Source of the DNA: Lachnospiraceae bacterium V9D3004
GTDB taxonomy: Bacteria; Bacillota; Clostridia; Lachnospirales; Lachnospiraceae
DNA: 64,000 nt
Reading direction: 5' to 3'
NCBI GenBank assembly: GCA_000621985.1
Contig: JHWW01000007.1
Coordinates: 1 to 64,000 of the forward strand
Shown here: piece by piece, positions 28,827 through 47,202 of the stretch
Position numbering within the stretch: the first letter of the stretch is position 1
How the letters are laid out: the number at the start of each line of letters is the position of its first letter
The notes under the pieces: model-generated
Databases searched by the model: none
Told to the model about the DNA's origin: nothing
Seen by the model: only the letters and a program-made list of their open reading frames with translations
Program-made: the position numbers and the translations under genes

Positions 28827-28832
28827 CTTTTG

Positions 28833-29778: not shown

Positions 29779-29792
29779 GTTTTCTCCTCCTT

Positions 29793-30212: not shown

Positions 30213-30254
30213 AGACAACCAACTCCTCCTTATATATTTAATATTGAGCGCTAT

Positions 30255-30300: not shown

Positions 30301-30309
30301 CGCTCAATT

Positions 30310-30349: not shown

Positions 30350-30356
30350 AATATAG

Positions 30357-31652: not shown

Positions 31653-31657
31653 ATACG

Positions 31658-32710: not shown

Positions 32711-32803
32711 CTAACCTTTTCCCCCTCCATTTCTTATATATATCTTCTGTATGCGCACTTATCAAAAATGTTTTTGTTTTTTCGTTACGAATTGCTCATA
32801 TAC

Positions 32804-33241
32804 CTAGCGCATATCCGGTTCAATTCTAGATAACACTTCATCTTTATATTTATCAGGAACACCATAAAACGCTTCTGCAATTCCAGCTGCAATACATGTT
32901 AACGTATCACAATCTCCACCTAAAGATACTGCGCATCGAACTACGTCCTCATAATCAGTTCCTTCCAAGAAGGCTGTGATAGCTTCAGGAACTGTTTCCT
33001 TGCAGCTTTCTACATGACGATATGCTGGGCGGATCTCATCAAGTGTTCTTGATAAATCATATCTAAACTCATCTATAATATATTTCTTAATCTCATCCTT
33101 TGACTTTCCTGTTCTTGCCAAGAAAATTGCTGAAGCTGTAGCTTCTGCGCCTTTTATTCCTTCAGGATGATTATGCGTAACCTCTGCTGTAATCCTTGCT
33201 ACTTCTCTTGTACGATCTATGGTATCATAAAGGAGTTGGAA
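32804..33241 (-). pseudogene. ADP-ribosylglycohydrolase C-terminal fragment
   Basis: The open frame reads YDTIDRTREVARITAEVTHN, HPEGIKGAEATASAIFLART and VRCAVSLGGDCDTLTCIAAG, the last third of DraG-type ADP-ribosylglycohydrolases with the metal-binding GGDxDT motif. The N-terminal two thirds are missing. The frame opens at a TGA (33244-33242), and homology starts only at about 33223, where it joins the start of a DUF4411 gene. No start codon gives a working enzyme. Confidence 0.85.
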
Positions 33242-33267
33242 TCAATTAAAAACTTTTCTTCTACCAT
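33217..33267 (-). pseudogene. DUF4411 (PIN-like toxin) N-terminal stub
   Basis: ATG 33267 overlaps the ImmA-type gene's stop and encodes MVEEKFLIDSNSFMIP before TAG 33217. MVEEKFLIDSNSF is the conserved start of DUF4411 proteins, PIN-like toxins that normally follow exactly this kind of metallopeptidase gene. The remaining roughly 150 residues have been replaced by the ADP-ribosylglycohydrolase fragment. Confidence 0.7.
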
Positions 33268-34430
33268 TCCACACCTCCATGACGCTGCACAACATCAGAA
33301 AATGTCTTGCGGCTTGTATTTGTCAGACGATATGCTTCTGTATAAGAAGTTCTACCCATATTGATGCTTTCACATAATGCTCTCACAAAGCATCCGTCTA
33401 AACGAGAACCCATGGTATTATAATAATTTCCACCAGAGCTCTCTTTGTTCTCTTTCATCTGATTGTAATTGTCAATTGCGGTCTGAACTACTGTATTATA
33501 CACATCCTGCTTTATCTTCTTACAATCCATCGCTTTTCTTGCAATAACAATCTCACCACAACGGAAATATTTCGCCAACTCAGTAATGGTTGCATACACA
33601 TCCATATCAATATCGCTGGCATTCCATTTATTCAGGAATACACTCTTTGGTACAATTAACTCTCCAGCTACTGCATTACACATTACTTCCGTGGCACTCA
33701 CACCATCCACACGATTTCTTCTGTCATTAAACAAATCATCTTCACCAATCCAAATATGAGCCACTTCATGTAATAGAGAAAATAACTTAGCACCATTAGA
33801 ATCTGCTGTATTAATAAATATAAGCGGAGCCCATTCATCAACCATAGCAAACGCCCTGAACTCATTTACATCCAATGCACGATGTGTATTCTTTCCTACC
33901 ACACCGCTCATCATCACAACTACACCACATTCTTCCAGCTTTCCTCTGATATAGCTGAAAACTTCTCTAGAGTCCTTGCATTTTTCGTACCGAGTATCTT
34001 CTAAGTCTAAATCCTTACGAATTCTATCAACGATAATACCGGCATCCTTAACACCCCTCATGCAACCAACAACAGGCAACACATCAAAACCCAGCTCCTG
34101 TCTGTAATCCTTCATCCAATCCTGAACACTTTCCATTTCATGAATTGTATCAATCAGATTACGACTTGGATTTGCAAGCTGAATACTATCTACAGTACGA
34201 TATTCCAGTAATTCAATCTGCTCTACTGGTGGTGTCTGCAAGAAGAAATATCCCAATGGAATATTGGCTTTCTTACTAAAATCCTCTATCTGATTAAAGG
34301 TCGGAGTCTTAGTACCGTTAAGCCACTGTGTTATATTGTTCATCAATTTATCGCCAAGTTTTTCTTCTTGTGTTTGACTTAAAGCCCAGCTAATTATTTC
34401 TGGCTGAATATTCACATTCACTGCTGGCAT
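33261..34430 (-). CDS. ImmA/IrrE-family metallopeptidase with XRE domain
   Basis: The 389-residue protein has an N-terminal XRE-like helix-turn-helix (SWALSQTQEEKLGDKL, QWLNGTKTPTFNQIEDFSKK, NIPLGYFFL) and a C-terminal ImmA/IrrE zinc protease domain with HEVAHIW (HExxH) near residue 222 and NAVAGELIVP. These proteins act as antitoxin-proteases for DUF4411/PIN toxins or cleave phage repressors. ATG 34430 behind AAGGAGG is chosen over GTG/ATG upstream. The toxin partner is destroyed, so this is an orphan antitoxin. Confidence 0.88.
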   Translation of the reverse strand: MPAVNVNIQPEIISWALSQTQEEKLGDKLMNNITQWLNGTKTPTFNQIEDFSKKANIPLGYFFLQTPPVEQIELLEYRTVDSIQLANPSRNLIDTIHEMESVQDWMKDYRQELGFDVLPVVGCMRGVKDAGIIVDRIRKDLDLEDTRYEKCKDSREVFSYIRGKLEECGVVVMMSGVVGKNTHRALDVNEFRAFAMVDEWAPLIFINTADSNGAKLFSLLHEVAHIWIGEDDLFNDRRNRVDGVSATEVMCNAVAGELIVPKSVFLNKWNASDIDMDVYATITELAKYFRCGEIVIARKAMDCKKIKQDVYNTVVQTAIDNYNQMKENKESSGGNYYNTMGSRLDGCFVRALCESINMGRTSYTEAYRLTNTSRKTFSDVVQRHGGVEW

Positions 34431-34504
34431 AGCACTACCTCCTTCCAATCAAACTTTTCTGATGTAATTATATCAAAAAAAATCAGTTTTGCACCAACTT
34501 TCTC

Positions 34505-34544
34505 AAAAAAAATCCCACTACCTACATTTCTGTAAATAGTGGGA
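34505..34544 (-). terminator. Terminator of the recombinase gene
   Basis: TCCCACTA (34513-34520) and TAGTGGGA (34537-34544) form an 8 bp stem, followed by eight T on the minus strand. It lies nine bases after the recombinase stop codon. Confidence 0.88.
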
Positions 34545-34552
34545 CGAAAATC

Positions 34553-36376
34553 TTATATCAGCATACAAACCTCAACTTCAATGTCATTCCATTGATTATG
34601 CCGTAGGTATGCACCATAACTTTTTCTATATTCTTTTGCTTTCTCAAAATCCAGCTTTACACTAAATAAATAGCATTCGCCTACTTTTGATTGATAGCTG
34701 CCTGTGTTGGTGTTAAATAAGTTTGAACCGTTTTCCTTATTTATATTCAATTTTCCGTCAGAATCGTTAATAAAACTCGATTCTACACAGTTTATAGCAC
34801 TTCCCGCTATATTAAGTTTCCAAGATAAAGATTTATCACTAACTCTAATCTCGTCAACAAATGCTTCAATAGCATTATCTGAAACGCCGTATTTGTCAAA
34901 ATCAAATCCTTGTTCCAACGCCTCTTGCAAGGCTTTTATCTTGTCCTCTATGTGGACATACTGATGATTAGCCATCTTCCTAAGTCGAGTCAACTCGTCA
35001 TCATACTTGGATATCTCAACATCAATAGCGTTTGATTTCTCTTGAAATAACTCTTTGGTTATCTCCTCATTCAGCCTTAATTCAAGTAACTTATCCTGCT
35101 TTACCTTTGCAGCAGATATCTTATTCTTAATATCAATTATCTCAATATCAAGGTCTTCTCCAGGATCCGGTTGCATACTCATATCAAGTAAACTGTTTGC
35201 TATTCTTAAGACGTTATCTTTATCAGACCATAATATCTTAAAAATCTCACGAGCCATCAACTGAAGTTCCCATTCTTTAAGTACAGGAGCTGTGCACACT
35301 CCTTCAATACTTAACCCTTTTTTCAACCGGTGTCTAACCGTACCTGTTGAACGTTGTCCATAACATTGAAAAGCAAATTTTTGATTCTCACCTTTCTTAC
35401 CGGACCAAACAATCCTGTTGAAATTATGATTACATGAACACCGAAGTTTCCGAGTCCATATTGTTTCTGTCTGCCGATGTCCTCTTATCCCACCTGTTTT
35501 AGAAGTTTGATGATTTGATAATCGAATCTCCTCAGCTTTCTTAAACATTTCTTTGCTGATAATCGGTTCATGCTTTCCTTCAACTACCACTTGTTCGGCT
35601 TCACCATGATTATTTATCTTCTTTTGATCTAGGTAATCCGGGACGTATTGCTTTCTGTATACTATTGTTCCGCAGTAAAATGGATTCCTCAGTATGCGGC
35701 TTATATTTGAAGGACTCCATTTACTTAGTCCTGTCGAAGTCTTTCTACCTCGCCTTTCAAGCTCATCTGCTAATTTCCTTGATCCATATCCATTTAAATA
35801 CAGTTCAAAAATCATTCTAACAGTTTCAGCCTGTTCAGGATTAATCACATACTCTTTTCCAACCCTATCGTAACCAAGAATATTACCATTACCATACGGA
35901 ACTGCGTTTTGAAATGATACCATTTGACCAGCTTTAACTCTTAAAGAAGTCTTCTTACTCTCATTCTGTGCCAAAGTAGCCATAATAGTAAGCCTTAACT
36001 CTCCGTCTTCGTCATTCATGGTCCAAATGTTGTCTTCCGTAAAGTATACTTCTACACCAATCTTCTTAAGTTTTCTTGTCTCTTGAAGCGTATCAACCGT
36101 ATTTCTTGCGAATCTTGACACTTCACGAGTTACAATCAGATCAAACCTACCATTGTTGGCATCTTCAATCATTCTCAAAAAGTTCTTTCGTTTTTTTATA
36201 GAAGTTCCTGTAATACCCTCATCAATATACTTTTCATATAATTCCCATTCCGGGTGAGATTCAAATAATCTGTCAAAGTACTGAACTTGATTGCCTAATG
36301 CTGATATCTGAGCTTCGTGTTCTGTAGAAACCCTTGCATATACGGCAACTTTTCTTTTATCCGTTTTCGTTTTCAT
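34553..36376 (-). CDS. Large serine recombinase
   Basis: The 607-residue protein has a resolvase domain with catalytic Ser17 (VYARVSTEHEAQ), the GITGTSIKKRKNFLRM and REVSRFARNTVDT motifs, a recombinase domain (LRNPFYCGTIVY), a zinc ribbon (LRCSCNHNFNRIV) and a C-terminal coiled coil. It belongs to the TnpX/SpoIVCA group that integrates and excises transposons and conjugative elements. Its end of the element should carry an attachment site; none was identifiable by eye. Its start overlaps the SHOCT-like gene by 20 bases. Confidence 0.92.
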   Translation of the reverse strand: MKTKTDKRKVAVYARVSTEHEAQISALGNQVQYFDRLFESHPEWELYEKYIDEGITGTSIKKRKNFLRMIEDANNGRFDLIVTREVSRFARNTVDTLQETRKLKKIGVEVYFTEDNIWTMNDEDGELRLTIMATLAQNESKKTSLRVKAGQMVSFQNAVPYGNGNILGYDRVGKEYVINPEQAETVRMIFELYLNGYGSRKLADELERRGRKTSTGLSKWSPSNISRILRNPFYCGTIVYRKQYVPDYLDQKKINNHGEAEQVVVEGKHEPIISKEMFKKAEEIRLSNHQTSKTGGIRGHRQTETIWTRKLRCSCNHNFNRIVWSGKKGENQKFAFQCYGQRSTGTVRHRLKKGLSIEGVCTAPVLKEWELQLMAREIFKILWSDKDNVLRIANSLLDMSMQPDPGEDLDIEIIDIKNKISAAKVKQDKLLELRLNEEITKELFQEKSNAIDVEISKYDDELTRLRKMANHQYVHIEDKIKALQEALEQGFDFDKYGVSDNAIEAFVDEIRVSDKSLSWKLNIAGSAINCVESSFINDSDGKLNINKENGSNLFNTNTGSYQSKVGECYLFSVKLDFEKAKEYRKSYGAYLRHNQWNDIEVEVCMLI

Positions 36377-36602
36377 TTAGGGTTCCTTCTTTCCTAATTT
36401 CGTACTCATTATAACATTTTTTATCAGATCTTGCAAGAGCTATATCCGCATTTTGTATAGCTTTTTCATATGTTTTTTCATCAATCATATCTTTCTTATA
36501 CAAATCCTTAATCAGTACTTTTGCCATCATAACATCCATCTTGTATCTTACTTCAGGATCCTTCAATTTGTGAAAAACACTACCAATAGATTCTATTTGC
36601 AT
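36357..36602 (-). CDS. SHOCT-like recombinase companion protein
   Basis: An 81-residue acidic/basic protein (GSVFHKLKDPEVRYKMDVMM, AKVLIKDLYKKDMIDEKTYEKA) whose second half resembles the SHOCT short helical domain (L-x2-G/D-x-IDEKTYEKA). ATG 36602 follows GGGGGA. It is translationally coupled to the recombinase and may act as its directionality or regulatory factor (inference). Confidence 0.65.
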   Translation of the reverse strand: MQIESIGSVFHKLKDPEVRYKMDVMMAKVLIKDLYKKDMIDEKTYEKAIQNADIALARSDKKCYNEYEIRKEGTLNENENG

Positions 36603-36628
36603 AGTGTATCCCCCTTTCCGTTGTGCTT

Positions 36629-36682
36629 CTATTTGCGGAGAGCAATGCACAAGCCTCCTTATGCACTCTTGTCCACAAATAG
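36629..36682 (-). promoter_or_regulatory. Long hairpin in the recombinase leader
   Basis: CTATTTGCGGA (36629-36639) pairs with TCCACAAATAG (36672-36682) over 11 bp with one wobble. Inside it GAG/CTC and an imperfect CTTATGCA/TGCACAAG stem continue. It ends 27 bp before the SHOCT-gene start. The further leader to 37035 has smaller pairings (for example TAAGCACA 36992-36999 with TGTGCTTA 37012-37019) but no ORF with a ribosome-binding site, so it may be a structured RNA. Confidence 0.6.
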
Positions 36683-37035
36683 TAATTAATACATCAATAC
36701 CGGTGGTTCCGGTTAAGAACCTACATAGGCGTTTCACCTGTCCCCTACCAAGGAACCCCTCTCGGGAAGTATCATTATAAAATGCAGTCGCAACCTTGAA
36801 GCTACCATAGCTTCCTTTTCTGCATGGATATTGTCGCTCCTTGGCTTAAGAACTTATATTAACAATGGCTAGTCAATCAACTTAAGACAGATCATGGCGT
36901 ATCTGCGGCCTGGCGCAATGCGAACTGCATCGGACGTCCGGTATTGATAACAATATTCAGTTGTAGATATCATCAGACTTTATCAGCCTAGTAAGCACAC
37001 AAGATTGCTTATGTGCTTATTCAGACTGACAAAAC

Positions 37036-37419
37036 CTACGACACATCTTTTAATTGTCCCGGAGAAATATGTAAGGTCATTAGCTTATGTAGAACAAAAA
37101 GCATTCTCTCCTGCTCATCAACAATAGTTTCATAGTCATATTCACTTATTGCCTTATACAATCTTATAAGTACGGTGGCGTCATTCTGGTTTAGTTTAAT
37201 AAGAGAGGATTGAGCTGCGGAATCTAATACTTTAATGTAACCGGCACATCCCGGCTGAGTATCAAGTGCTAACAAATAATCAGAAATAAATCTCACATCT
37301 CGTATAGCTGTTGATTTACTTATATTGAATTCTTCCATCAAGCTATCATAATGTGTAACTCTTGCTTCCAATATAAACGAGCACATATCAAACCGCCGCT
37401 CCAAGTTTTTCACAGACAT
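37036..37419 (-). CDS. HTH_11/DeoR-type regulator
   Basis: A 127-residue protein with an N-terminal helix-turn-helix (FILEARVTHYDSLMEEFN, ISKSTAIRDVRFISDYL) and no sugar- or WYL-binding domain. AAGGAGG stands before ATG 37419. It sits at the head of the leader for the recombinase genes and probably controls excision, but this is inferred only from position. Confidence 0.7.
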   Translation of the reverse strand: MSVKNLERRFDMCSFILEARVTHYDSLMEEFNISKSTAIRDVRFISDYLLALDTQPGCAGYIKVLDSAAQSSLIKLNQNDATVLIRLYKAISEYDYETIVDEQERMLFVLHKLMTLHISPGQLKDVS

Positions 37420-37564
37420 GACGCCACCTCCTTTCTCAAAAAAATGATGTATTTATCATTTGTATTGAAGAGCATAACACCCAATGGTTTCAGTTCACGC
37501 TACCATTCAGAAATTTTTTTCAAAAAAATTCTCAATCCCCCTAAAGTGGCTTAAAAACGCAAAA

Positions 37565-37652
37565 AATCAAGGGCTCTGCCGATATATTTCGCCTTCAAAA
37601 CATATCATAGCAGTTTAAAATGTAGGAATTTCTACATTTTAAGCCCTTGATT
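37565..37652 (-). terminator. Nested stem-loop after the UvrA-like gene
   Basis: AATCAAGGGCT (37565-37575) pairs perfectly with AGCCCTTGATT (37642-37652). Inside this 88-base structure TTAAAATGTAG (37615-37625) pairs with CTACATTTTAA (37632-37642). On the minus strand the outer stem is followed by TTTTTGCG. It is probably a composite terminator of the RiPP locus. The stretch 37420-37564 shows only AT-rich sequence. Confidence 0.6.
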
Positions 37653-37728
37653 ATAAAAATCTTATTTTTTTCACTTATTTAGCTAACACTATTAAAAATG
37701 GCACTTGAAAACTAATCTTCTAATGTTG

Positions 37729-39858
37729 TTATATCTCTTCACCCATTAGAATTCCATTATCATTTATTAGATTTATATGCAAATCAAAATAATCAAAACT
37801 TTTTTCTTCATGATCAACTACTATTACCGTTTTACCTTGTTCACATAAATCAGCTAAGGATTTTGCCACAGCAAATATTTCACAGTTATCAAGGCCCTTG
37901 AACGGTTCATCTATTCCATATACATCTGATTTTCCTTTTAATGCAGACACTAGTTTAATTCTTATATTTTCACCACCAGACAAAGAAGAAAGTTTCTCCC
38001 CAATTTGCAAATGTCCAAGCAATAGCTTTTGAGCCATTCTCAAGGTTTCACATACATTTTTTTCCACGTCTTCAAAGAACTCGACCGCCTCATCTATTGT
38101 CATTTCCCATGCATCTATAATCGATTTTCCTTTAATTTTATAGGCTTGAAGTTTTTTATCAAAACCTGTACCTCTACAATCCTTACATTTTAGCACAATT
38201 TGGCTCTGCAATTTAGAACCATACAATATTTCTCCTGTACCTCCACATATTCGACAAGCCCCCTTAGAACTTGACATATTTGAGAAAAAGCTTTTATCTT
38301 TATTATTTGCATTAGCATAACATTTAGATATTCTCTCAAATATTCCCAAATATGTTACAACATAAGAATGTGATTTCCCGTCAATTGGCTTTTGATTTAT
38401 ATATTCATAATCATCAAAAAATCTTGGCAAGTATTCTCGTAAAAGCGTAGACTTGCCAATTCCAGATTTTCCAGAAATAATATTCATCGCTTCTTTTCCA
38501 TACTTTATATTTATCCCTCTATACCCATATATCTTTCCAGTCAGAGAGACATTTACAATATCAACTTCCTTTTTGGATTTTAAAACCTGCTTTTTTTGTT
38601 GTTTAGCAAGATATTTTTCAGTATTAATTATATAACCACCATTACTCCCACTTCCTTCACCCAAGGTAATAATTTGAGCAGCATCATTAATAAACATGTC
38701 ATGGTGATCTATAATTAACAAAGTATGCTTCTTAGCAAGCAGTTTTATATTTTGATATATAATCTTCTTTTCATCAAATGCCAAACCCGCCAACGGCTCA
38801 TCTAACACAATTAGCAAATCATTAAGTTGTGTTTCAAAAACTTGAATCAACCTTAACCGTTGTAATTCACCACCCGATAAAGAAGGTATAGTACGATTCA
38901 TATACAAATAACCCACTTTTAATTCAGAGGCTTTTTGAGCAAATTCACCTAATTGTCTAAGTGAAAACTTAATATTACTACAATCATATTCATTTTGTAC
39001 TTTTAATATCCACGAATTAAACCTATCAAATGGTAGTAGCAGAATCTCCCCTATAGAATAACCACATATTTTATGCTCTTTGTGTCCTGGTTCAAACTTT
39101 TCACCATTACATTCATCACAAGGCAATTCTGAAAAGAAACCTGCACTAGGTGCAAAGTTTTTTAGCATAGGCTTTTCCGTTAGCGGTCCGTAATAAGTCG
39201 TTGTTCTCGTACTAAAATGATTAGTAACTTTATACTTGATTGTATATTTTTTTGAGCCACTTCCACTCAGCAAGAGCTGTTTTTGCTTGTCTGAAAGTTG
39301 CTTAAACTTTAACGATGTATCAATACCAACATCAGTACAATACCGCTCTAATATTTGCCTATAAAAATCTTTATTCCTATTCCAGCATCTAATTGGTACA
39401 TCTATTATTTTTTTATTGAAATCAATTATTTTATTAGCATCTAACTGTTTTGTATATCCCAATCCTAAACAATTAGGGCATACATTTTCCATCTTATTTA
39501 AGACAAAAAAATCGTATGGCAATTCTAACAAAGAAGAATAAATTTTGGCCAAACATGAACTCAAAGAAAAATAAGTTCCTATTGTGGATCTTACATTATT
39601 ATTATGATTCAGCTGTTTTATAGGAACTGTAACTATCATATTTTCATATGAATCAATTTTATACTCTGGCTCTTTAACTCCGTCGTAATACATTGAACCC
39701 AACTCATGAAGACCTATTTGAGCAATAGTATCATATGCCAAAGAAGATTTTCCGCTTCCTGATGGCCCCACAATAAGATTTATGGAATTTTTTTTAAGAC
39801 TAACAGAGATTTTTTTTAGATTATTAGTCTCTGCACCTCGAACTATGATATCATCCAT
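37729..39858 (-). CDS. UvrA-like ABC ATPase of the CXXX peptide locus
   Basis: The 709-residue protein has the duplicated UvrA layout: Walker A GPSGSGKSS near 31, zinc motif CPNCLGLG, signature LSGGELQRLRL, Walker B VLDEPLAGL. The second half repeats it: GKSGIGKST, CRICGGTG and CKDCRGTG, LSGGENIRIKL, GIDEPFKGL. Housekeeping UvrA has about 940 residues, so insertion domains are reduced. UvrA-like proteins in antibiotic clusters (DrrC) give self-resistance. Here it is 16 bp after the radical SAM gene with its own AAAGGAG. A protective role or a role in handling the peptide is inference. Confidence 0.85.
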   Translation of the reverse strand: MDDIIVRGAETNNLKKISVSLKKNSINLIVGPSGSGKSSLAYDTIAQIGLHELGSMYYDGVKEPEYKIDSYENMIVTVPIKQLNHNNNVRSTIGTYFSLSSCLAKIYSSLLELPYDFFVLNKMENVCPNCLGLGYTKQLDANKIIDFNKKIIDVPIRCWNRNKDFYRQILERYCTDVGIDTSLKFKQLSDKQKQLLLSGSGSKKYTIKYKVTNHFSTRTTTYYGPLTEKPMLKNFAPSAGFFSELPCDECNGEKFEPGHKEHKICGYSIGEILLLPFDRFNSWILKVQNEYDCSNIKFSLRQLGEFAQKASELKVGYLYMNRTIPSLSGGELQRLRLIQVFETQLNDLLIVLDEPLAGLAFDEKKIIYQNIKLLAKKHTLLIIDHHDMFINDAAQIITLGEGSGSNGGYIINTEKYLAKQQKKQVLKSKKEVDIVNVSLTGKIYGYRGINIKYGKEAMNIISGKSGIGKSTLLREYLPRFFDDYEYINQKPIDGKSHSYVVTYLGIFERISKCYANANNKDKSFFSNMSSSKGACRICGGTGEILYGSKLQSQIVLKCKDCRGTGFDKKLQAYKIKGKSIIDAWEMTIDEAVEFFEDVEKNVCETLRMAQKLLLGHLQIGEKLSSLSGGENIRIKLVSALKGKSDVYGIDEPFKGLDNCEIFAVAKSLADLCEQGKTVIVVDHEEKSFDYFDLHINLINDNGILMGEEI

Positions 39859-39874
39859 GGTTGGTCTCCTTTAA

Positions 39875-41023
39875 TCACATAATATCCTTGTACTCCTCAA
39901 ATTCAGGTATAAAATCCTTTTTTATGCGCTCAATTGCTGTAATTGTATTATATACCCTCTCTTTAGGAAGTGTATTTGGATTCTTTAAAAGTCTCTTTGC
40001 AAGCAAATCCGCGACATACAACGTGATAAGCTTCTGTGCTCTACATTTTGTTTTATCACGATGCTTAAATGATTTCTGTGTTAAATAATTTGCCCCAGGA
40101 CAATACGGACATATTGGATGTATAAAGCAACTGAAACACTCTTCATCAACAAAATAATCGTCTTTATTAAAATCCACTTTCTGAATATCTTTCAATTCCT
40201 TGTCGTCAAATGTCATAGGTGTGACAAATGGGCATGGATACCTAGTACCATCAGTATCAAAAAATATAGTACCAACTCCTATTCCACACCACTTGCGTTT
40301 ATTTTTAACTTCTTCAACACAAACACCTATTTGTCGTCCCATCATTTGATCTAGTACTAGTTCATCATGTTCGACATAGAATTCAACTAATTTTTTTAAT
40401 TGAGGGATAAGCATTTTAATATACTTCTCATCGCTCCAATCAAACTCACCTTCAAATAAATTTACTCCATCAATCTCTTTGAATCCAAGATTATGAATAT
40501 GAATAATATTTTCTGCCAAATTAGGTAAAGTATAATCAGAAATTGTCATCTTAACACCTTGATTTGGCCACGTCTTCAAAAAGAATTCTTTATCAATTTT
40601 TTCGTATGAGTTACTTCTGTTATGATTATGTGTCTCAGGTAATCCGTCCAAACTTAATCCCAAAACAAAATTATTCTTTCGTTCTGCGAACCACTGTTTC
40701 ATATCATCATTCAAAAGTGCACCATTTGTTGTGGCATAAAAAATATATGAACATGTATCTCCGTATTTTTCATGAGTATAATCGTATATTTTCTTTATTA
40801 ATTCAAATTCAACTAATGGTTCTCCTCCTATAAAAGATACTTCTATTCCATCCATATCTTCCGGAACATTATCAAATATCCAATCTATACAATCACACGC
40901 AGTCTCAAAGGACATACGATTATTTCCATCATGATTCTGATAGCAATATACACAATCTAAATTACAACTATGTGTAACACATAAGCTAGGTGAAAACCTA
41001 GTTCCTTTTTTTATGTCGCTCAT
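39875..41023 (-). CDS. Radical SAM/SPASM peptide maturase
   Basis: A 382-residue enzyme with C20-x3-C24-x2-C27 (THSCNLDCVYCYQN) and GGEPLVEF (SAM-binding GGEP). The C-terminal SPASM-like region contains DTDGTRYPCPF, then CFSCFIHPICPYCPGANYLT and KCRAQK, which should bind auxiliary Fe-S clusters. This is the pattern of RiPP maturases that install thioether bonds. The CXXX-repeat precursor lies directly upstream, with a hairpin between, so it is the expected substrate. The enzyme fits the family described as maturases of CXXX-repeat peptides. Confidence 0.88.
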   Translation of the reverse strand: MSDIKKGTRFSPSLCVTHSCNLDCVYCYQNHDGNNRMSFETACDCIDWIFDNVPEDMDGIEVSFIGGEPLVEFELIKKIYDYTHEKYGDTCSYIFYATTNGALLNDDMKQWFAERKNNFVLGLSLDGLPETHNHNRSNSYEKIDKEFFLKTWPNQGVKMTISDYTLPNLAENIIHIHNLGFKEIDGVNLFEGEFDWSDEKYIKMLIPQLKKLVEFYVEHDELVLDQMMGRQIGVCVEEVKNKRKWCGIGVGTIFFDTDGTRYPCPFVTPMTFDDKELKDIQKVDFNKDDYFVDEECFSCFIHPICPYCPGANYLTQKSFKHRDKTKCRAQKLITLYVADLLAKRLLKNPNTLPKERVYNTITAIERIKKDFIPEFEEYKDIM

Positions 41024-41054
41024 ATTTCACGCTCCCTTAATACAATATAAAACA

Positions 41055-41084
41055 AGCTGCTCACCTCAAATCAGGTAAGCAGCT
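41055..41084 (-). terminator. Hairpin between precursor and maturase genes
   Basis: AGCTGCTCACCT (41055-41066) pairs with AGGTAAGCAGCT (41073-41084) over 12 bp with one wobble and a six-base loop, followed by TGTTTTATATT on the minus strand. A leaky terminator here would make far more precursor than enzyme, as usual for RiPP operons. Confidence 0.8.
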
Positions 41085-41108
41085 CTTTTGGCGTCCACTC
41101 AATGAAAA

Positions 41109-41303
41109 TCAGCTTCCTGAACCACTACAGCTTCTACCGCAGTTTCCAGTACAACCCGTCTCACATCCACCAGCGCACGACTGTCCACAGTTACCTGTGC
41201 AGCCACAACCATTGGCATAGTAAACATTTCCAACCAAAGCTGGCTCATAGTTTTTCTTCATATCGTTGAGCGCATCAATAATAGTGTCAGTTAAAAAACC
41301 CAT
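41109..41303 (-). CDS. CXXX-repeat RiPP precursor peptide
   Basis: ATG 41303 with GGAGG seven bases upstream encodes 64 residues. The leader (1-31, MGFLTDTIIDALNDMKKNYE then PALVGNVYYAN) is helical and acidic. The core starts GCG and has cysteines at 33, 35, 39, 43, 47, 51, 55 and 59; from 35 on every fourth residue is Cys, giving CTGN-CGQS-CAGG-CETG-CTGN-CGRS-CSGS. Only Gly, Ser, Thr, Asn, Gln, Glu, Ala and Arg fill the gaps. Such regular C-x3-C spacing is the substrate type of radical SAM thioether maturases. An upstream in-frame start (41357) would add 18 residues but lacks a site. Confidence 0.88.
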   Translation of the reverse strand: MGFLTDTIIDALNDMKKNYEPALVGNVYYANGCGCTGNCGQSCAGGCETGCTGNCGRSCSGSGS

Positions 41304-41332
41304 AGAAGCACCTCCATTACATTTATAGTTGT

Positions 41333-41361
41333 ATATTATCACATTCAAACTAAACAATCAA
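41333..41361 (-). promoter_or_regulatory. Promoter of the CXXX precursor gene
   Basis: TTGATT (41361-41356) and TAATAT (41338-41333) are spaced by exactly 17 bp on the minus strand, about 30 bp before the precursor start. Confidence 0.65.
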
Positions 41362-41593
41362 GTTCTGATAAGTTTTTTTTGTTGAAATTTGCCAAAAAAA
41401 AATTCAAGAAAAATCATGAAATGCCCTAAAATACGCGTTTTATAATCTTATCGTATAATAATTACAAAATTAACATTTAGTATCATCTCACCCCAAAATC
41501 CTTGTATTTACTAAGTTTCCACAATTTTCCGCTAAATATTTTTTCAAATATTTTGCTACCAAAAAAAGAGAACAACTTGTTCTATGCATCGGA

Positions 41594-41630
41594 TCAAAAA
41601 AAGAGCAATCTCAAAGTGAGATGCTCTTTC
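41594..41630. terminator. Bidirectional terminator
   Basis: AAGAGCAATCTCA and TGAGATGCTCTT pair with a one-base bulge and a short AAG loop. The minus strand has seven T after the stem, and the plus strand has TTTCATTTTT. It separates the decayed reading frame from the CXXX precursor promoter. The stretch 41362-41593 has no further gene. Confidence 0.8.
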
Positions 41631-41637
41631 ATTTTTA

Positions 41638-41927
41638 TTATACATAATCTTCTATTCTAACAATCTTAGTCAATGACTTTTCTTTGAGTATTACATTATA
41701 AGAAAATATCTTCATCATGATAATTAACATACTTCTGATTTCTATCATTTGAATCGAATTCACTAATAAAGCGTTGCACCCTTGTATCTTTTCCAACTAT
41801 TATGCTTTCTAATCTATCACACAACAAATTATTTATGTTGTATAATTTAGAATTATTCAGATCATAAATGCAACTTCTAGCATTCCCTTTGACTAAATAG
41901 ACAATTATCTACCAATGCATAAAACAT
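41638..41927 (-). pseudogene. Frameshifted short gene upstream of the CXXX operon
   Basis: ATG 41927 with GTAGGAGGG upstream starts MFYALVDNC, then shifts by one base into YLVKGNARSCIYDLNNSKLY, NINNLLCDRLESIIVGK and YVNYHDEDIF, and by another base into YNVILKEKSLTKIV and RIEDYV, ending at TAA 41638. The total length (290 bp) is not a multiple of three. The VKGNARSxxYDLNxxKLYxIN part recalls the N-terminal recognition segment of some radical SAM peptide maturases, but I cannot confirm the family. It is probably a degraded modification-enzyme gene or a short accessory gene. Confidence 0.5.
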
Positions 41928-41952
41928 ACAGTTTTACCCTCCTACATGCCAA

Positions 41953-41995
41953 AGAAATAAAAGGAGTATACTACCCTAATCGGTGTATACTCCTT
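41953..41995 (-). terminator. Terminator after the 43-residue peptide gene
   Basis: AAGGAGTATAC (41961-41971) and GTATACTCCTT (41985-41995) form a perfect 11 bp stem with a 13-base loop, followed by TTATTTCTTT on the minus strand. Confidence 0.8.
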
Positions 41996-42019
41996 AACAT
42001 TTTCATCTCACAAAAATAA

Positions 42020-42151
42020 TTAGTTAGGACTACAGTCTGGTCCACAACATCCTTCAACGTCCGGATAACACATTCCATACAAAGGTGAACACTCTTCCGT
42101 AGTAATCTTTTCTGAACCTTCAACTTGTGTCAAGCACTCCAACTCATACAT
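42020..42151 (-). CDS. 43-residue cysteine-rich peptide (possible RiPP precursor)
   Basis: ATG 42151 behind AAGGAGGAG encodes MYELECLTQVEGSEKITTEE, then CSPLYGMCYPDVEGCCGPDC and SPN. Six cysteines lie at 6, 21, 28, 35, 36 and 40, with an acidic front half. It is flanked by a strong terminator and lies 0.85 kb upstream of the CXXX precursor. The spacing is not CXXX, so if it is modified another enzyme or another bond pattern is needed. It could equally be a small metal-binding or regulatory peptide. No family recognised. Confidence 0.6.
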   Translation of the reverse strand: MYELECLTQVEGSEKITTEECSPLYGMCYPDVEGCCGPDCSPN

Positions 42152-42246
42152 AAAAATCTCCTCCTTATTATATTTATTTCAAAATACAAGGATATGTTCC
42201 AATAACCATCCCAATGCCAATCAGCAAACAATTAAATTACATACAA

Positions 42247-42282
42247 TTATGCTGAGCCAAGCAAACTTCCTAACATTCCCAT
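42247..42282 (-). CDS. 11-residue mini-ORF with strong ribosome-binding site
   Basis: ATG 42282, eight bases after AGGAGG, encodes MGMLGSLLGSA and stops at 42247. The site is too good for chance, but the product is tiny. It may be a leader peptide controlling the 43-residue gene 95 bp downstream, or a hydrophobic signalling peptide. A TATAAT box (42346-42341) lies about 60 bp upstream. Confidence 0.4.
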   Translation of the reverse strand: MGMLGSLLGSA

Positions 42283-42376
42283 ACTAATATCCTCCTAACA
42301 TATCCTTACCGAATCAACGTATAAATATATATACTTTTGTATTATACATCCTAAAAGTGAGAAAGATGTGATTCTC

Positions 42377-43432
42377 CTACCCATACACCTTCATCACTCT
42401 CTGTGCCCTTGCCTTCATCTCATCTACAACACCGCTGTTATCATCGTTTTCAACCCAAGCAAGTTCAGGAACATTAATAAGCCAATTGGTAAGAGCCCCT
42501 TTGCAAGAAGTCACCTTCACTCGCCTCACTCCCTTATCCCGACTTATATACTGAGGATACTCAACATCAATTTGAAACTCTTGTCTAACAGTATCCATAA
42601 ATTCCTCGCGAACCACAAGAATAACCGTCACAACAACATCACGCGTCATCCTTGGATGCCTTTTCAGATATTCAGCCAAATCAAACCTCCCATCAGTGCC
42701 GATATCATCAAGCAATCTGATATCATATGCCGGCTCATCAACTAATTCACAATCATTTATTCTATCCAAACGATAATGACTGAGCCTGCGCTCACCATTA
42801 CTCCTTCCAAGGCAGTAATACCGACCACTATACACAGCTAAATAATAAGGAGAAACACCATCACACCGCTTGTCCCGATAAAAAAATGACACTCTTTTCC
42901 GCTTCTCAATCGCCTCTCCCAACACGCTAATATTTTCAACAACTTCTGTATTATCAGTCTTCTTTACAATATTTCCAATCCGAATATACCGGTGCACATT
43001 AACAAAATGCTTACTTGCAAATAAAACTACCTTATCAATAAGCCTTTTGGCTCTCTCATCATCCATACCCGGTGCAAACAGAATCGCATCTATAATCATC
43101 CTGATTTCAACATCTTTTAACGGACGCTCACTGACATAATACTCATGATTATTTCCTTTCTCCCCCCTAACAGCCTCTCGACCGATATCAACATCACAAT
43201 CCAGATAACCATACTCCTTCATTTGCTCGAAGAATACAATCAAATCGTTAAGATACGACATTATAAGACGTTTATTGCTATTATAGACACAACTCTCTTT
43301 GGGCTGATAAATGTCAAGCACCTTCTTAACAAGTTCATCAGTAGGCAAATGATGACTATCATCACTGTTTCGCCAAAGCACTAAAAGAATTATCAACGGT
43401 AGCATTTTCTTATCAGATATCAATCCCATCAA
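42377..43432 (-). CDS. WYL-domain transcriptional regulator
   Basis: A 351-residue protein with an N-terminal winged-helix region (LIILLVLWRNSDDSHHLPTD start) and a central WYL domain (GVSPYYLAVYSGRYYCLGRS, RLSHYRLDRINDCELV), followed by a WCX-like C-terminus (VREEFMDTVRQEF). WYL regulators sense nucleic-acid or nucleotide ligands and often control defence or DNA-damage genes. It lies between the peptide locus and the small XRE gene, and is a candidate regulator of both. Confidence 0.85.
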   Translation of the reverse strand: MMGLISDKKMLPLIILLVLWRNSDDSHHLPTDELVKKVLDIYQPKESCVYNSNKRLIMSYLNDLIVFFEQMKEYGYLDCDVDIGREAVRGEKGNNHEYYVSERPLKDVEIRMIIDAILFAPGMDDERAKRLIDKVVLFASKHFVNVHRYIRIGNIVKKTDNTEVVENISVLGEAIEKRKRVSFFYRDKRCDGVSPYYLAVYSGRYYCLGRSNGERRLSHYRLDRINDCELVDEPAYDIRLLDDIGTDGRFDLAEYLKRHPRMTRDVVVTVILVVREEFMDTVRQEFQIDVEYPQYISRDKGVRRVKVTSCKGALTNWLINVPELAWVENDDNSGVVDEMKARAQRVMKVYG

Positions 43433-43496
43433 GAATCCCTCCTTAAATGCAAAAAGGGAACCCTTTTATGAGTCCCCTGTTGTCAAACCACATTAT

Positions 43497-43724
43497 TTAC
43501 TTAACTCGAACTATTAACTCTCCCACTTCAATGTTCAAGTATTCACATATCTTGCATACCAAGTTAGCATCAATCCGCTGAAATTCATCACGGCAATATT
43601 TATTAAAATTGCTACGAGGAATGTCTAGATCCTTGCAAATCCTTGTCTTACTGATATTTCTTTCTTCCAGTATCTCAACTATACGCATGTGCAACCTACC
43701 ATATTGTTTCTTACCAGTAGCCAT
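43497..43724 (-). CDS. Small XRE-type regulator
   Basis: A 75-residue Cro/CI-like protein (RLHMRIVEILEERNISKTRI, CKDLDIPRSNFNKYCRDE, NLVCKICEYLNIEVGEL). The start is at 43724. A perfect 12 bp inverted repeat lies 14-46 bp upstream, so it probably represses itself. It precedes the WYL gene by about 65 bp and may share its transcript. Confidence 0.85.
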   Translation of the reverse strand: MATGKKQYGRLHMRIVEILEERNISKTRICKDLDIPRSNFNKYCRDEFQRIDANLVCKICEYLNIEVGELIVRVK

Positions 43725-43737
43725 AGGGAATCACCTC

Positions 43738-43770
43738 ACTAATTGTATAGTTATATTTTATACAATTAGT
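43738..43770. promoter_or_regulatory. 12 bp inverted-repeat operator
   Basis: ACTAATTGTATA (43738-43749) and TATACAATTAGT (43759-43770) are perfect complements separated by nine bases, just upstream of the small XRE gene. The centres are two helical turns apart, as expected for a dimeric repressor. Confidence 0.65.
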
Positions 43771-43821
43771 AACTTTTTTATAATTCTCTATATAGCTACT
43801 CACTATATAGTTAGTATGTAA

Positions 43822-43852
43822 AATAGCCCTCTGCACCACTCAGAGGGCTATT
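43822..43852. terminator. Terminator after glf
   Basis: AATAGCCCTCTG (43822-43833) and CAGAGGGCTATT (43841-43852) form a perfect 12 bp stem with a seven-base loop, with TTTT on the minus strand. The 180 bp between it and the glf stop contain no gene. Confidence 0.75.
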
Positions 43853-44036
43853 CCTATCATTCCCTTATAAAACTTTTGTCAGGAATAAGCTAAACCGTCA
43901 ATACTGAAGTCACTTACATCACTTCAAGCGGCTCTTCTTGAACTTAAACGATTATTGATACAATATAACAGTACTCCTTTTTTAAAATAACGATCAATCC
44001 ACTTTTATATTGCCGTTCTAACAGCTATCAACTAAT

Positions 44037-45146
44037 TTAAAGTGTTTTCACCTTCTCCAAAGCCATTGCTATTACCTGATCCATATCATAGTACTTGTAC
44101 TCACCGAGCCTTCCTCCGAAAATTACGTTCAATTCCTTTGCAGCAAGTTCTTTATAAGCCTCATAAAGTTTTCCATTCTTATCATCATTCACAGGATAAT
44201 AAGGTTCTAATCCCGGTTTCCATTCTGAACTGTACTCACGGCTTATCACTGTCTTTGGCAAATTTTTACCTTCTTCATCCTTACCGAATTCAAACCATTT
44301 GTGCTCAATAATTCTAGTCCATGGTGTCTCCGCATCTGTGTAATTCACAACGGCATTACCCTGGAAGTTTGGCTTATTCAAAGTCTCGTTTTCGAAACAA
44401 ACAGAACGATATTCAAGATTACCAAGACTATAATTAAAGTACGCATCAATCGAACCAGTGTAAATCACAGTCTTTGCATTTTTCATTAACTCATCTTTAT
44501 GCTCAAAGAAATCCACACCTGTTCGAACATCGACACCAGATAACATATTATTTACCATCTTAGTATATCCGCCTACAGGTATTCCCTGATAAAGAGCATT
44601 GAAATAATTGTTATCAAATGTCAGACGAACCGGAAGACGTTTAATAATGTACGTAGGCAGTTGATCACATGGTCTACCCCATTGTTTTTGTGTATATTCC
44701 TTAATCAATTTTTCATATATATCTGTACCAACAAGAGTTATCGCCTGCTCTTCCAAATTTTTTGGTTTTACTATTCCAACCGCTTTCCTTTGTTCTTCAA
44801 TCTTAGTAGACGCCTCTTCCGGAGTTACAGCCCCCCACATCTTATTAAATGTATACATATTGAACGGTAGACTGTACAGTTCACCTTTATAGTTTGCCAA
44901 TGGAGAATTAGTGAAGCGGTTGAATTCAGCAAATCTCTGAACATATGACCACACCGTCTTATCATTCGTGTGGAAGATATGTGGTCCATAAATATGAACA
45001 TTAATGCCCTCAACCTTCTCAGTATACACATTCCCTGCGATGTGGTTACGCTTGTCAATCACTAATATTTTCTTTCCTACATCTGTTAATTCACGGGCAA
45101 CAGTTGCTCCATAAAGCCCCGCGCCTACTATTAGATAATCGTACAT
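44037..45146 (-). CDS. glf: UDP-galactopyranose mutase
   Basis: The 369-residue flavoenzyme has VGAGLYGATVARELTDVGK (FAD-binding GxGxxG at 7-12), GNVYTEKVEGINVHIYGPHI, YTQKQWGRPCDQLP, FDNNYFNALYQGIPVGGYT and SREYSSEWKPG, all typical of Glf. It converts UDP-galactopyranose to UDP-galactofuranose for surface glycans or glycosylated products. The 228 bp before the next gene suggest its own promoter, separate from the long operon upstream. Confidence 0.95.
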   Translation of the reverse strand: MYDYLIVGAGLYGATVARELTDVGKKILVIDKRNHIAGNVYTEKVEGINVHIYGPHIFHTNDKTVWSYVQRFAEFNRFTNSPLANYKGELYSLPFNMYTFNKMWGAVTPEEASTKIEEQRKAVGIVKPKNLEEQAITLVGTDIYEKLIKEYTQKQWGRPCDQLPTYIIKRLPVRLTFDNNYFNALYQGIPVGGYTKMVNNMLSGVDVRTGVDFFEHKDELMKNAKTVIYTGSIDAYFNYSLGNLEYRSVCFENETLNKPNFQGNAVVNYTDAETPWTRIIEHKWFEFGKDEEGKNLPKTVISREYSSEWKPGLEPYYPVNDDKNGKLYEAYKELAAKELNVIFGGRLGEYKYYDMDQVIAMALEKVKTL

Positions 45147-45374
45147 TTTTAAGCTTCCTTCCTAATAATTCTCATAATACTTATTATCTAATTTTCCAGC
45201 AAATTATTTTCAACAACTTAAATTATGCTATACCAGCAACAACTTCAACCAAATTTGATAAGTAATTTGCTATAATACTACTTATTATTACATATGTATA
45301 CATGATAATTTACGGTACCACATTATACTAGAAAAGCCACAACATCAAATAACACCCTGATGAACTGTAGACAT

Positions 45375-45899
45375 TCAGTTGTGTTTATTTGAAACCACAC
45401 AATAACAAATCAAGTTCTCATACTTTTTTGTCAAAAAATTATATCTCCTGTCCCTAAGTTCAGCTTCCTTCTTCATCCCTGCTTTTTTCATCACTGTTCC
45501 ACTATAAGGATTTCCACTATAATGACTGGCTTCAATCACATGATAATTCTCAACCTCTAATAAATATTCAATTATCGATTTCAACATTTCCGTTGCATAT
45601 CCTTGCCGACGCTTATCATATTTTACTGCATAACCTATTTCACAGTATCTATGTTTTCTACTCTTTTTTATTACATTGATATTACCTATAAAACAATGTG
45701 TGTTTCTATCCTCCGCAATCCAACAATATTCTTTTTCAGCGTAGTTTTTTATCCACTTTTCAACTATCACAACATCTTCTTTTTGAATGATTTTATGTGT
45801 TCCCATATAGTCCAACCACATTTCCTTCAACGAATCATAATCGCTTTTTCTATATCTTCTCAGAACCAATCTTTCAGTATGTATTTTGTCCAAATTCAT
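45375..45899 (-). CDS. GNAT acetyltransferase (RimJ/RimL type)
   Basis: A 174-residue GNAT protein: TERLVLRRYRKSDYDSLKEM start, CWIAEDRNTHCFIGNI, YDKRRQGYATEMLKSII (acetyl-CoA loop R/Q-x2-G-x-A) and SGTVMKKAGMKKEAELRDR at the end. ATG 45899 after TGAGGTG is chosen over the upstream 45923. It is the last gene of the long glycan operon and could acetylate a sugar amine or a peptide N-terminus. Confidence 0.9.
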   Translation of the reverse strand: MNLDKIHTERLVLRRYRKSDYDSLKEMWLDYMGTHKIIQKEDVVIVEKWIKNYAEKEYCWIAEDRNTHCFIGNINVIKKSRKHRYCEIGYAVKYDKRRQGYATEMLKSIIEYLLEVENYHVIEASHYSGNPYSGTVMKKAGMKKEAELRDRRYNFLTKKYENLICYCVVSNKHN

Positions 45900-45999
45900 A
45901 ATCACCTCAATCTTCTTAAACATCTAATAACGCTTACTTCTTTGAATAATCTTGTGTGGCAGAGCCGGAATATTCACTTCTTCTCAGGTCCATATAATC

Positions 46000-47202
46000 C
46001 TAATCAAGCCCAAAAACATCTCTCGAATATACTTTATCAATGCTATCTTCAAGTTCCTCATCCACTCTGTTTGCTATAATAATATCTGCTCTTTTCTTAA
46101 ATTGTTCAATATCCGAAACAAATTCAACTCCCAGCAAATCCAAACATTCATCATACTCTTTATCAAAAACAATTATACAGCTTTGTCCAAAAATCCTTAC
46201 AAGTTCTTTCAATAGAGAAATCATAGAACTATTCCGAGTATTGTCTGATTTTTTTTTCATTGATAGTTTATAAATTCCCATCGTATCATTTGGTGACACA
46301 TGTCGTTTTATATCATTTAGAATAATATCAATCCTCAATTTATTAGAACATACTACCGAAGAAAAAATGCATTCTTTGGAATTTGGATAACAATCAATTA
46401 GTTCTTTAACATCCTTCGGCAAACAATAACCACCATACCCAAATGACGGGTTATTATAGTAATTCCCAATTCTATAATCAGAACATATGCCATTTATAAT
46501 ATCCACACTTTTAGCATTGTTAATAATTGCAAAATTATCAAGTTCGTTAAAGAAACATACTCGCATTGCAAGATACGCATTTGAAAATAATTTTATTGCT
46601 TCAGCTTCCAAATATCCTGTGATGAACACCTCAAAATCTTTCTTTTCAGATACACACCTAATTAATTCAACATAGTGGTTTGCAGCCTTCTTGCACATAT
46701 CATCATTTTCGTCAACACCAACCACTACACGATTTGGATTCAAACAATCATCCAAAGCTGTTGTTTCCCTTAAAAACTCAGGACAGTATATTATCTGATT
46801 TGTAGTATTTCTTGCATTTCTATTGATGTACCCTATAGGTAAAGTAGATTTAATGACAATATAAGCCTCTGGACATCTCAGAGCAATTTCTGTAATATAT
46901 TCATCAATACAACTAGTATCAAGAGTTTTATTATTAGCATCGTAATCTGTAGGTAACGCAATAACAACAATTTCCGCATCACTATCCAATGCTTCGCCAA
47001 TTTCTTGCGTAGCCTTCAAATTCAAATCAAAAGTATTAAAACAAAAATCAATCCTCTCATCTACAAACGGAGATTTCCTGTTATTTATAGCATTAATCTT
47101 CTGGTCATCTATATCAAGTATTGTCACTTCATTACTTTGGGAAAGCATTATCGCAACTGAAAGTCCTACATACCCCGCACCAACAACAACTATTCTATTC
47201 AA
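46000..47202 (-). CDS. UDP-glucose/GDP-mannose dehydrogenase family
   Basis: A 400-residue NAD-dependent sugar-nucleotide dehydrogenase: VVVGAGYVGLSVAIML (Rossmann), STLPIGY, CPEFLRETTALDDCLNPNRV, and the catalytic Cys in GYGGYCLPKDVKEL. It is shorter than average (about 430), of the group that oxidises UDP-glucose to UDP-glucuronate. TTG 47202 nine bases after AAGGAG is a better start than TTG 47220. It provides acidic sugar donors for the cluster. Confidence 0.9.
   Translation of the reverse strand: MNRIVVVGAGYVGLSVAIMLSQSNEVTILDIDDQKINAINNRKSPFVDERIDFCFNTFDLNLKATQEIGEALDSDAEIVVIALPTDYDANNKTLDTSCIDEYITEIALRCPEAYIVIKSTLPIGYINRNARNTTNQIIYCPEFLRETTALDDCLNPNRVVVGVDENDDMCKKAANHYVELIRCVSEKKDFEVFITGYLEAEAIKLFSNAYLAMRVCFFNELDNFAIINNAKSVDIINGICSDYRIGNYYNNPSFGYGGYCLPKDVKELIDCYPNSKECIFSSVVCSNKLRIDIILNDIKRHVSPNDTMGIYKLSMKKKSDNTRNSSMISLLKELVRIFGQSCIIVFDKEYDECLDLLGVEFVSDIEQFKKRADIIIANRVDEELEDSIDKVYSRDVFGLD

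What the first reader, a model, noticed from the sequence alone, without database searches (positions are those of the whole stretch)
37729..41361. CXXX-repeat RiPP locus coupled to a UvrA-like ATPase
Seen: a promoter, a 64-residue precursor with cysteines at 33 and then at every fourth residue from 35 to 59, a hairpin, a radical SAM/SPASM enzyme and a UvrA-like double ABC ATPase in one direction with short gaps. Known: radical SAM maturases of CXXX-repeat peptides install thioether links, and UvrA paralogues such as DrrC protect producers of DNA-binding drugs. Inference: the mature peptide may act on DNA, or the UvrA-like ATPase may protect against or carry it. No exporter or protease is in the cluster, so the product could be intracellular. 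This pairing is the strongest candidate for an undescribed system.
Basis: partly seen in the sequence, partly recalled or inferred. Interest (0 to 1): 0.85.

Follow-up and report, generated by a model that had tools for sequence, protein, structure and literature searches.

The report
Modified-peptide cassette with UvrA-like partner
A gut-type bacterium carries a small gene set that makes a cysteine-rich, probably modified peptide together with an ATPase built like a DNA-damage sensor, and the same pairing recurs in unrelated bacteria with other peptide-modifying enzymes, which points to an undescribed kind of peptide system that may act at DNA.

Summary
In detail: a 64-aa Cys-ladder precursor, a radical SAM maturase and a 709-aa UvrA-like double ABC ATPase form one compact operon (37729-41361, minus strand). 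The same three-gene order occurs in two other Lachnospiraceae with different flanks; the core peptide is almost frozen while leader and ATPase diverge. The ATPase is built like class II UvrA (Ecm16/DrrC): no UvrB-binding domain, two zinc modules, both ATP sites intact. In a tree of 67 UvrA-like proteins it falls in a clade of seven; all seven directly follow a peptide-modifying enzyme and a short Cys-rich ORF. The enzyme differs: this maturase (3), FibroRumin radical SAM (2, incl. a Campylobacter plasmid), paired ThiF enzymes (2, Acinetobacter and Moraxella plasmids). A second UvrA-like lineage sits between two radical SAM enzymes (3 loci). No exporter was found in the stretches scanned around nine such loci. 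So the ATPase-peptide link is real and wider than one maturase family. Most likely the peptide acts at DNA inside the cell and the ATPase clears it or protects against it; that mechanism is inference. Thioether chemistry is untested, and the maturase misses the cut-offs of every NCBIfam family shown. My paper searches found no description of the pairing.

The parts
41333..41361 (-). Likely promoter: -35 TTGATT (41356-41361), 17 nt, -10 TAATAT (41333-41338)
   Evidence: Homologous positions in L033 and L034 (TTGACA-17-TATGAT in L034) in the alignment, read by eye; not found by the scan
41109..41303 (-). Precursor peptide gene, 64 aa, leader about 1-31, Cys-ladder core about 32-64
   Evidence: homologues in L033 5721-5915 and L034 5727-5921
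41112..41210 (-). Core region (residues 32-64), 8 Cys
   Evidence: 33/33 identical between L033 and L034 with 20 synonymous and 0 nonsynonymous changes; window differs at 2 of 33
41054..41085 (-). Terminator-like hairpin between precursor and maturase (may set the peptide:enzyme ratio)
   Evidence: hairpins predicted in all three species
39875..41023 (-). Radical SAM peptide maturase, 382 aa
   Evidence: Pfam; NCBIfam best PapB 146 bits (cut-off 340) and CXXX-repeat 136 bits (cut-off 350); 90% and 75% identical relatives
37729..39858 (-). UvrA-like double ABC ATPase, 709 aa, class II architecture (no UvrB-binding domain; zinc modules C127/C130/C247/C250 and C535/C538/C558/C561)
   Evidence: clade
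34553..36376 (-). Large serine recombinase (Resolvase + Recombinase domains) 1.35 kb downstream of the cassette; context, suggests a mobile element, no element edges found

Best explanation
A ribosomally made, enzyme-modified peptide (RiPP) cassette with a dedicated UvrA-like ATPase. One transcript starts at the precursor; a hairpin lets fewer transcripts reach the maturase and ATPase. The radical SAM enzyme modifies the Cys-ladder core, probably by cross-linking Cys to neighbouring residues. The product probably stays in or re-enters the cytosol (no exporter found nearby) and binds DNA or a DNA-protein complex. The UvrA-like protein recognises peptide-loaded DNA with its insertion domain and uses ATP hydrolysis to strip or neutralise it, by analogy with Ecm16 and echinomycin, so the carrier is protected. 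Shown: anatomy, co-conservation, intact ATPase motifs, frozen core, recurrence of the ATPase clade with different modifying enzymes. Inferred: all chemistry, regulation, the DNA target, and protection as the task.
For: Same order in L033 and L034 with different flanks. ATPase start lies -14 to +18 nt from the end of the modifying enzyme in 7 of 7 clade members (positions). Tree of 67 UvrA-like proteins: the clade holds exactly the 7 coupled ones, SH-aLRT 100; 100/100 in the careful tree of 22. Four of the seven (L045, L101, L179, L180) came from ATPase searches, not maturase searches. Of 52 other UvrA-like loci from genomes, 3 have a radical SAM pair, 1 a weak ThiF hit, 48 none of six enzymes tested; six annotated plasmid stretches round other UvrA-like genes have none. 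Architecture and zinc-Cys spacing match Ecm16. No ORF of 150 aa or more with 3 or more TM-like segments near 8 of 9 coupled loci scanned; the ninth (L112) has one, phosphatase-like by eye. The genome has a normal UvrA elsewhere.
Against: The core has no aromatic residue and one acidic and one basic residue, unlike intercalators or cationic DNA binders. No DNA-binding or resistance test exists. Self-protection from a secreted antibiotic would want an exporter. The one FibroRumin maturase above cut-off among 398 genomes of the phylum (G727/L070) has no UvrA-like neighbour, and distant relatives of this maturase lack it (L035, L036, L046), so the ATPase is not needed for the chemistry. Short ORFs rich in Cys are common by chance (one search lists many beside other UvrA-like genes), so they count only with position and conservation. 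The ThiF pair joins the clade across long branches (path 5.7 to the window, where the program warns of long branches). The AlphaFold model failed (mean pLDDT 39), so no structural test was made.
Confidence: 0.45

Rival explanations
1. Two-component surveillance or defence device: the modified peptide is a prosthetic part or effector of the UvrA-like ATPase, which scans foreign or damaged DNA for the mobile element's benefit; nothing is secreted.
For: No exporter found near the nine coupled loci scanned. Mobile setting in several: plasmids (L045, L179, L180), relaxase or Mob genes (L101, L034), recombinase (window). L179 lies about 0.7 kb after BREX brxL; L034 is followed, on the other strand, by an ATPase with best PADLOC hits NsnB, AriA, AbiLi and Old. 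Core frozen by selection.
Against: For the window ATPase PADLOC's best hit is mad3 (1.5e-37, residues 568-697) and for the maturase pVip (8.8e-12); I judge both as shared-fold cross-hits. Two defence-like neighbours are anecdotal. No nuclease or NADase effector in the cassette.
Confidence: 0.25
2. The UvrA-like ATPase is a maturation or trafficking partner (chaperone, peptide carrier) for Cys-rich peptides and has left DNA behind.
For: It follows radical SAM as well as ThiF enzymes, within 18 nt or overlapping in 7 of 7.
Against: UvrA_DNA-bind insertion domain, both zinc modules and all ATPase motifs are kept. Related maturases occur without it in other loci.
Confidence: 0.15
3. Chance neighbour: an ordinary mobile class II UvrA drug-resistance gene beside a RiPP.
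For: UvrA-like genes are common on Firmicute plasmids, and the five Firmicute stretches opened show no RiPP genes.
Against: Order kept in 3 species with different flanks; a separate clade with peptide modifiers in 7 of 7.
Confidence: 0.05
4. Toxin-antitoxin-like addiction module: the peptide harms the host's own DNA inside the cell, and the ATPase is the antidote that keeps the mobile element.
For: Mobile setting, no exporter found, antidote-like class II UvrA build.
Against: Needs three genes and enzyme chemistry; no toxicity data.
Confidence: 0.1

Closest known systems
Ecm16 / DrrC-type class II UvrA self-resistance proteins
   Same: Two ABC NBDs, no UvrB-binding domain, zinc modules 2 and 3 with the same Cys spacing, insertion domain, placed in a biosynthetic locus
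   Different: Clade apart from the UvrA-like proteins sampled here; 709 aa; partner is a RiPP, not a small-molecule intercalator; resistance untested; Ecm16 and DrrC themselves were not in the trees
FibroRumin radical SAM RiPP (TIGR04135/TIGR04136)
   Same: Cys-rich short precursor and radical SAM maturase; in two loci followed by the same ATPase clade
   Different: Window maturase only 25% identical over the aligned part, 382 against 469 aa; TIGR04136 not among its best 25 families
CXXX-repeat target radical SAM family (TIGR04115) and PapB ranthipeptide maturases (NF047865)
   Same: Best two NCBIfam hits; Cys every fourth residue
   Different: Less than half the curated cut-offs; core lacks the Asp/Glu partners that PapB uses; the annotated TIGR04115 locus L037 has an ABC transporter gene and no UvrA-like gene in the stretch shown
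ThiF-type RiPP enzymes (weakly SagC-like)
   Same: L179/L180: short Cys-rich ORF, two ThiF enzymes, same ATPase clade
   Different: Other chemistry; Gammaproteobacteria plasmids; ATPase only 30% identical to the window's

Membership tests
RiPP biosynthetic locus | Short precursor with leader and core beside a peptide-modifying enzyme, conserved together | tested here: met
   Order in 3 species; core conserved, leader diverged
RiPP biosynthetic locus | Modified product detected | not testable with these tools
   needs co-expression and mass spectrometry
CXXX-repeat target radical SAM family TIGR04115 | Score above curated cut-off 350 | tested here: not met
   135.8 bits
PapB ranthipeptide maturase NF047865 | Score above curated cut-off 340 | tested here: not met
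   146.3 bits
[quoted passage not shown]
   one acidic residue in the core; motif from PMC9413430 passages
FibroRumin TIGR04136 | Score above cut-off 400 | tested here: not met
   not among the best 25 families; window maturase not returned at E 1e-20
Canonical UvrA TIGR00630 | Score above cut-off 729.8 and UvrB-binding domain | tested here: not met
   315.6 bits; profile positions 110 to 112 span 115-261 of 3pih
Class II UvrA (Ecm16/DrrC-like) | No UvrB-binding domain, zinc modules 2 and 3, insertion domain, two intact NBDs | tested here: met
   (sequence only)
Class II UvrA (Ecm16/DrrC-like) | Protection against the locus product | not testable with these tools
   bench only
Class II UvrA (Ecm16/DrrC-like) | Groups with class II proteins in a tree | tested here: inconclusive
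   7-member clade splits from the other sampled proteins; root unknown; Ecm16/DrrC rows not held

The most novel reading that the evidence does not exclude
UvrA-coupled RiPPs are a general class of mobile-element systems: several peptide chemistries (three radical SAM types and ThiF pairs) feed Cys-rich peptides that never leave the cell to a dedicated UvrA-like ATPase, forming a peptide-dependent DNA surveillance, defence or addiction device rather than an antibiotic with immunity.
Probability: 0.3. Interest if true: 0.88.

Novelty: new variant of a known kind. Interest (0 to 1): 0.73.

Why it matters
Class II UvrA proteins are known as guards against DNA-binding small molecules, and the guard gene has been used to find a new intercalator (PMC10413001, passages). 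Here ATPases of that build are tied to short Cys-rich peptides with four enzyme types (three in one ATPase clade, one in a second lineage). That gives a marker to find RiPPs that act on DNA, a target class rarely reported for RiPPs (general knowledge, not a search), and a direct test of whether Cys-ladder peptides without exporters work inside the cell.

Tried and rejected
AlphaFold of the ATPase from A2 (window, L033, L034): mean pLDDT 39, not used. Viral contigs: maturase profile 3 distant loci (not followed); ATPase profile, none of 471 stretches encodes a relative; FibroRumin profile, 65 loci at 21-34% over partial lengths, judged generic and not followed. FibroRumin in 398 genomes of the phylum: 351 weak matches, 1 over cut-off, no UvrA-like beside it. 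Empty site: the 9 other genus genomes hold only scattered matches to window 28000-46500, none in the cassette. L. plantarum ThiF plasmid: no UvrA-like gene in the stretch shown. PADLOC: hits judged as cross-hits. PHROGs: phrog_21263 (unknown function) 305 bits for the ATPase, taken as phage UvrA, not followed.

A first tree held one wrong row, L184, an antisense ORF picked by length; the clade then had 93/85. With the right ORF it is 100/100. The fork that would join the PqqD-radical SAM lineage to the clade is 66/61, not shown, and warns of long branches there. In one search, 49 fetched loci plus L109 became 35 rows after dropping repeated ORFs, 68 loci became 52.

Papers: listings only; passages in PMC10192343, PMC10413001, PMC13289728, PMC10352776, PMC9413430; PMC12250964 had no match to my terms. 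The library holds open-licence papers only.
Full report
What is there. The window's genome is of the family of Lachnospiraceae bacterium 28-4 (L034): family samples drawn round the window and round L034's genome G799 hold the same loci (for example contig C67 at 11.1-13.3 kb in both), and labels L033 and L034 Lachnospiraceae. On the minus strand one compact operon runs from 41361 to 37729: likely promoter, 64-aa precursor, terminator-like hairpin, 382-aa radical SAM enzyme, 709-aa UvrA-like ATPase, with gaps of 85 and 16 nt. The Cys ladder is far beyond chance.

Relatives with the same order. One scan of the 84,980-species genome collection with the maturase alone, which reaches close relatives only, found two: Butyrivibrio sp. 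MC2013 (L033) and Lachnospiraceae bacterium 28-4 (L034). Both have precursor, maturase and ATPase in the same order. Identity to the window is 90 and 75% for the maturase and 78 and 63% for the ATPase. Flanks differ: pyruvate phosphate dikinase (by eye) and a DUF5688 gene in L033, an integrase (by eye) and a Mob_Pre gene in L034. The maturase is rare: 1 of 10 genus genomes, the window's own; 3 of 397 family genomes at E 1e-30, the own one and two distant (227 and 112 bits).

Selection. Between L033 and L034 the 33-residue core is identical, with 20 synonymous and no nonsynonymous changes, while the leader is 17/31, the maturase 291/381 and the ATPase 448/708 identical. The window differs from both at 2 of 33 core residues. 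So the core is the best-kept part. A hairpin after the precursor is predicted in all three.

The ATPase. It is not canonical UvrA: 316 bits against a cut-off of 730, and the genome has a canonical gene on another contig at 1464 bits. The A4 profile aligns to 7sh1 (Ecm16 by PMC10192343) in one piece, 3-698 to 42-775, and skips 115-261 of UvrA 3pih, which I take as the UvrB-binding part. Ecm16 coordinates zinc through C176, C179, C296, C299 and C589, C592, C612, C615 (PMC10192343, passages). The window protein has C127, C130, C247, C250 and C535, C538, C558, C561, the same spacings; all eight are invariant in seven clade members, as are both Walker A lysines, both signature SGGE, both DE pairs, Q82, Q489, H385 and H683 (motif names from general knowledge).

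The ATPase clade travels with different modifying enzymes. Searching plasmids with the ATPase gave 124 records at E 1e-40, 12 of them covering 80% or more of it. I opened the six best listed, H41-H46. H41, Campylobacter sp. RM16187, is 45% identical over 99%; the ATPase directly follows two FibroRumin precursors and a FibroRumin maturase. H42 and H43, opened partly because ThiF was named beside H43, are Acinetobacter and Moraxella plasmids where a 66- or 63-aa Cys-rich ORF (39 identical residues) and two ThiF enzymes precede the ATPase. H44-H46 have a MarR regulator before the gene and no modifying enzyme. In 79 genomes of the genus of strain MC2013, 4 match at E 1e-90; two are clade members (MC2013 itself and G867), the other two score 345 and 334 bits. 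G867 (L101) has a short Cys-rich ORF (25.9 bits to TIGR04135, below its cut-off 45), a FibroRumin maturase (750 bits, cut-off 400) and the ATPase, with an ArdC-like gene 2.2 kb and a relaxase 3.9 kb upstream. In 397 genomes of the family, 39 match at E 1e-90: L034's own at 1354 bits, the rest at 370 or less. In 391 class genomes, 20 match at E 1e-110: the window's at 1180 bits, the rest at 462 or less.

Trees. In the careful tree of 22 proteins the seven coupled ATPases form a clade at 100/100. In a quick tree of 67, with all 49 other genome loci, seven other plasmid genes, the own canonical UvrA and three PqqD-lineage genes, the clade again holds exactly these seven (SH-aLRT 100). The ThiF pair joins the other five across long branches, so that join is less sure than the five-member clade (100/100).

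Control and bias. L033 and L034 were found through the maturase and the window was given; L045, L101, L179 and L180 came from ATPase searches. Of 52 distinct UvrA-like loci outside the clade, with flanks up to about 1.5 kb, 48 show none of six tested modifying enzymes, one (L005) a weak ThiF match, and three (L032, L080, L194) a pair of radical SAM enzymes (L032 is the source of those two queries). In these three a different UvrA-like lineage of about 777 aa sits between a radical SAM protein (PqqD and SPASM domains in L112) and a second radical SAM protein, after a 32-33 aa ORF with CG(D/S)GPCGRPC. Cys-rich short ORFs as such are weak evidence: one search lists many, mostly out-of-frame, beside generic genes. 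Position, conservation and family matches carry the claim.

No exporter found. Within 5 kb (less where the record ends; only 0.4 kb on one side of L113), ORFs of 150 aa or more with three or more TM-like segments occur near 1 of 9 coupled loci (L112, a 230-aa protein, PAP2-like by eye). L206 was not scanned. Below that threshold, L033 has a 103-aa membrane-like ORF, and the Moraxella stretch starts with the end of a cation transporter gene about 4.2 kb upstream. Of 9 uncoupled maturase loci scanned the same way, 6 have such ORFs, among them ABC transporters in L036 (by eye), L037 and L038; L035, L046 and L070 have none; L072 and L073 were not scanned. The contrast is small in number and flanks are uneven, but it agrees with a product that stays inside.

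How it most likely works. I commit to a peptide that acts at DNA in the cell, with the ATPase as the guard that recognises peptide-loaded DNA, in the way shown for Ecm16, whose insertion domain separates drug-bound from free DNA and links it to ATP hydrolysis. Against it stands a core without aromatic residues or net positive charge. The rival in which peptide and ATPase together form a defence or addiction device fits the missing exporter and the mobile setting as well; BREX beside L179 and an AriA/Old-like ATPase beside L034 are hints only.

Novelty. Each half is a known kind. Their coupling across several chemistries was not found in my searches: 'FibroRumin' 0 papers; UvrA + radical SAM + RiPP + precursor peptide 0; 'UvrA' + 'RiPP' 19 papers, 15 listed, none on this by title; TIGR04115/TIGR04136/CXXX repeat 0; further listings show none by title, of the 25, 12, 12 and 12 rows seen. 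A genome-mining paper names RiPPs among BGC classes near uvrA-like genes in actinobacteria without details in the passages seen (PMC10413001), so the general idea is not wholly new. Most subscription papers, and preprints, were not in reach.

Noticed in passing
window 42020-42151 (-): 43-aa ORF with a good-looking ribosome-binding site and several Cys (ends CCGPDCSPN), between the cassette and a WYL regulator; possible further small Cys peptide, no NCBIfam hit.
   Followed up: no
window 48857-49621 (-): Small radical SAM protein (254 aa) among what look like glycan genes; no precursor sought.
   Followed up: no
L112 4518-9569, L113 4804-9847, L206 2087-7174: Second UvrA-like lineage between two radical SAM enzymes with a conserved 32-33 aa ORF carrying CG(D/S)GPCGRPC; two genomes of the window's family or the genus of MC2013 and one of its order.
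   Followed up: partly
L179 4514-9109, L180 4544-9148: Short Cys-rich ORF, two ThiF enzymes and UvrA-like ATPase on Acinetobacter and Moraxella plasmids; L179 lies after BREX pglZ/brxL.
   Followed up: partly
L048 5692-7319 (own genome contig C1): Cys-rich 47-aa ORF and radical SAM enzyme that look like the common clostridial SCIFF pair (by eye).
   Followed up: no
L036 615-5923 (gut phage scaffold MT836223): Two radical SAM enzymes, Cys-X3 peptide, ClpP-like protein and ABC exporter (last two by eye): an exported relative of this maturase system.
   Followed up: no
window 37613-37644: Long inverted repeat just downstream of the ATPase gene, terminator-like on the plus strand; may mark an element edge.
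   Followed up: no
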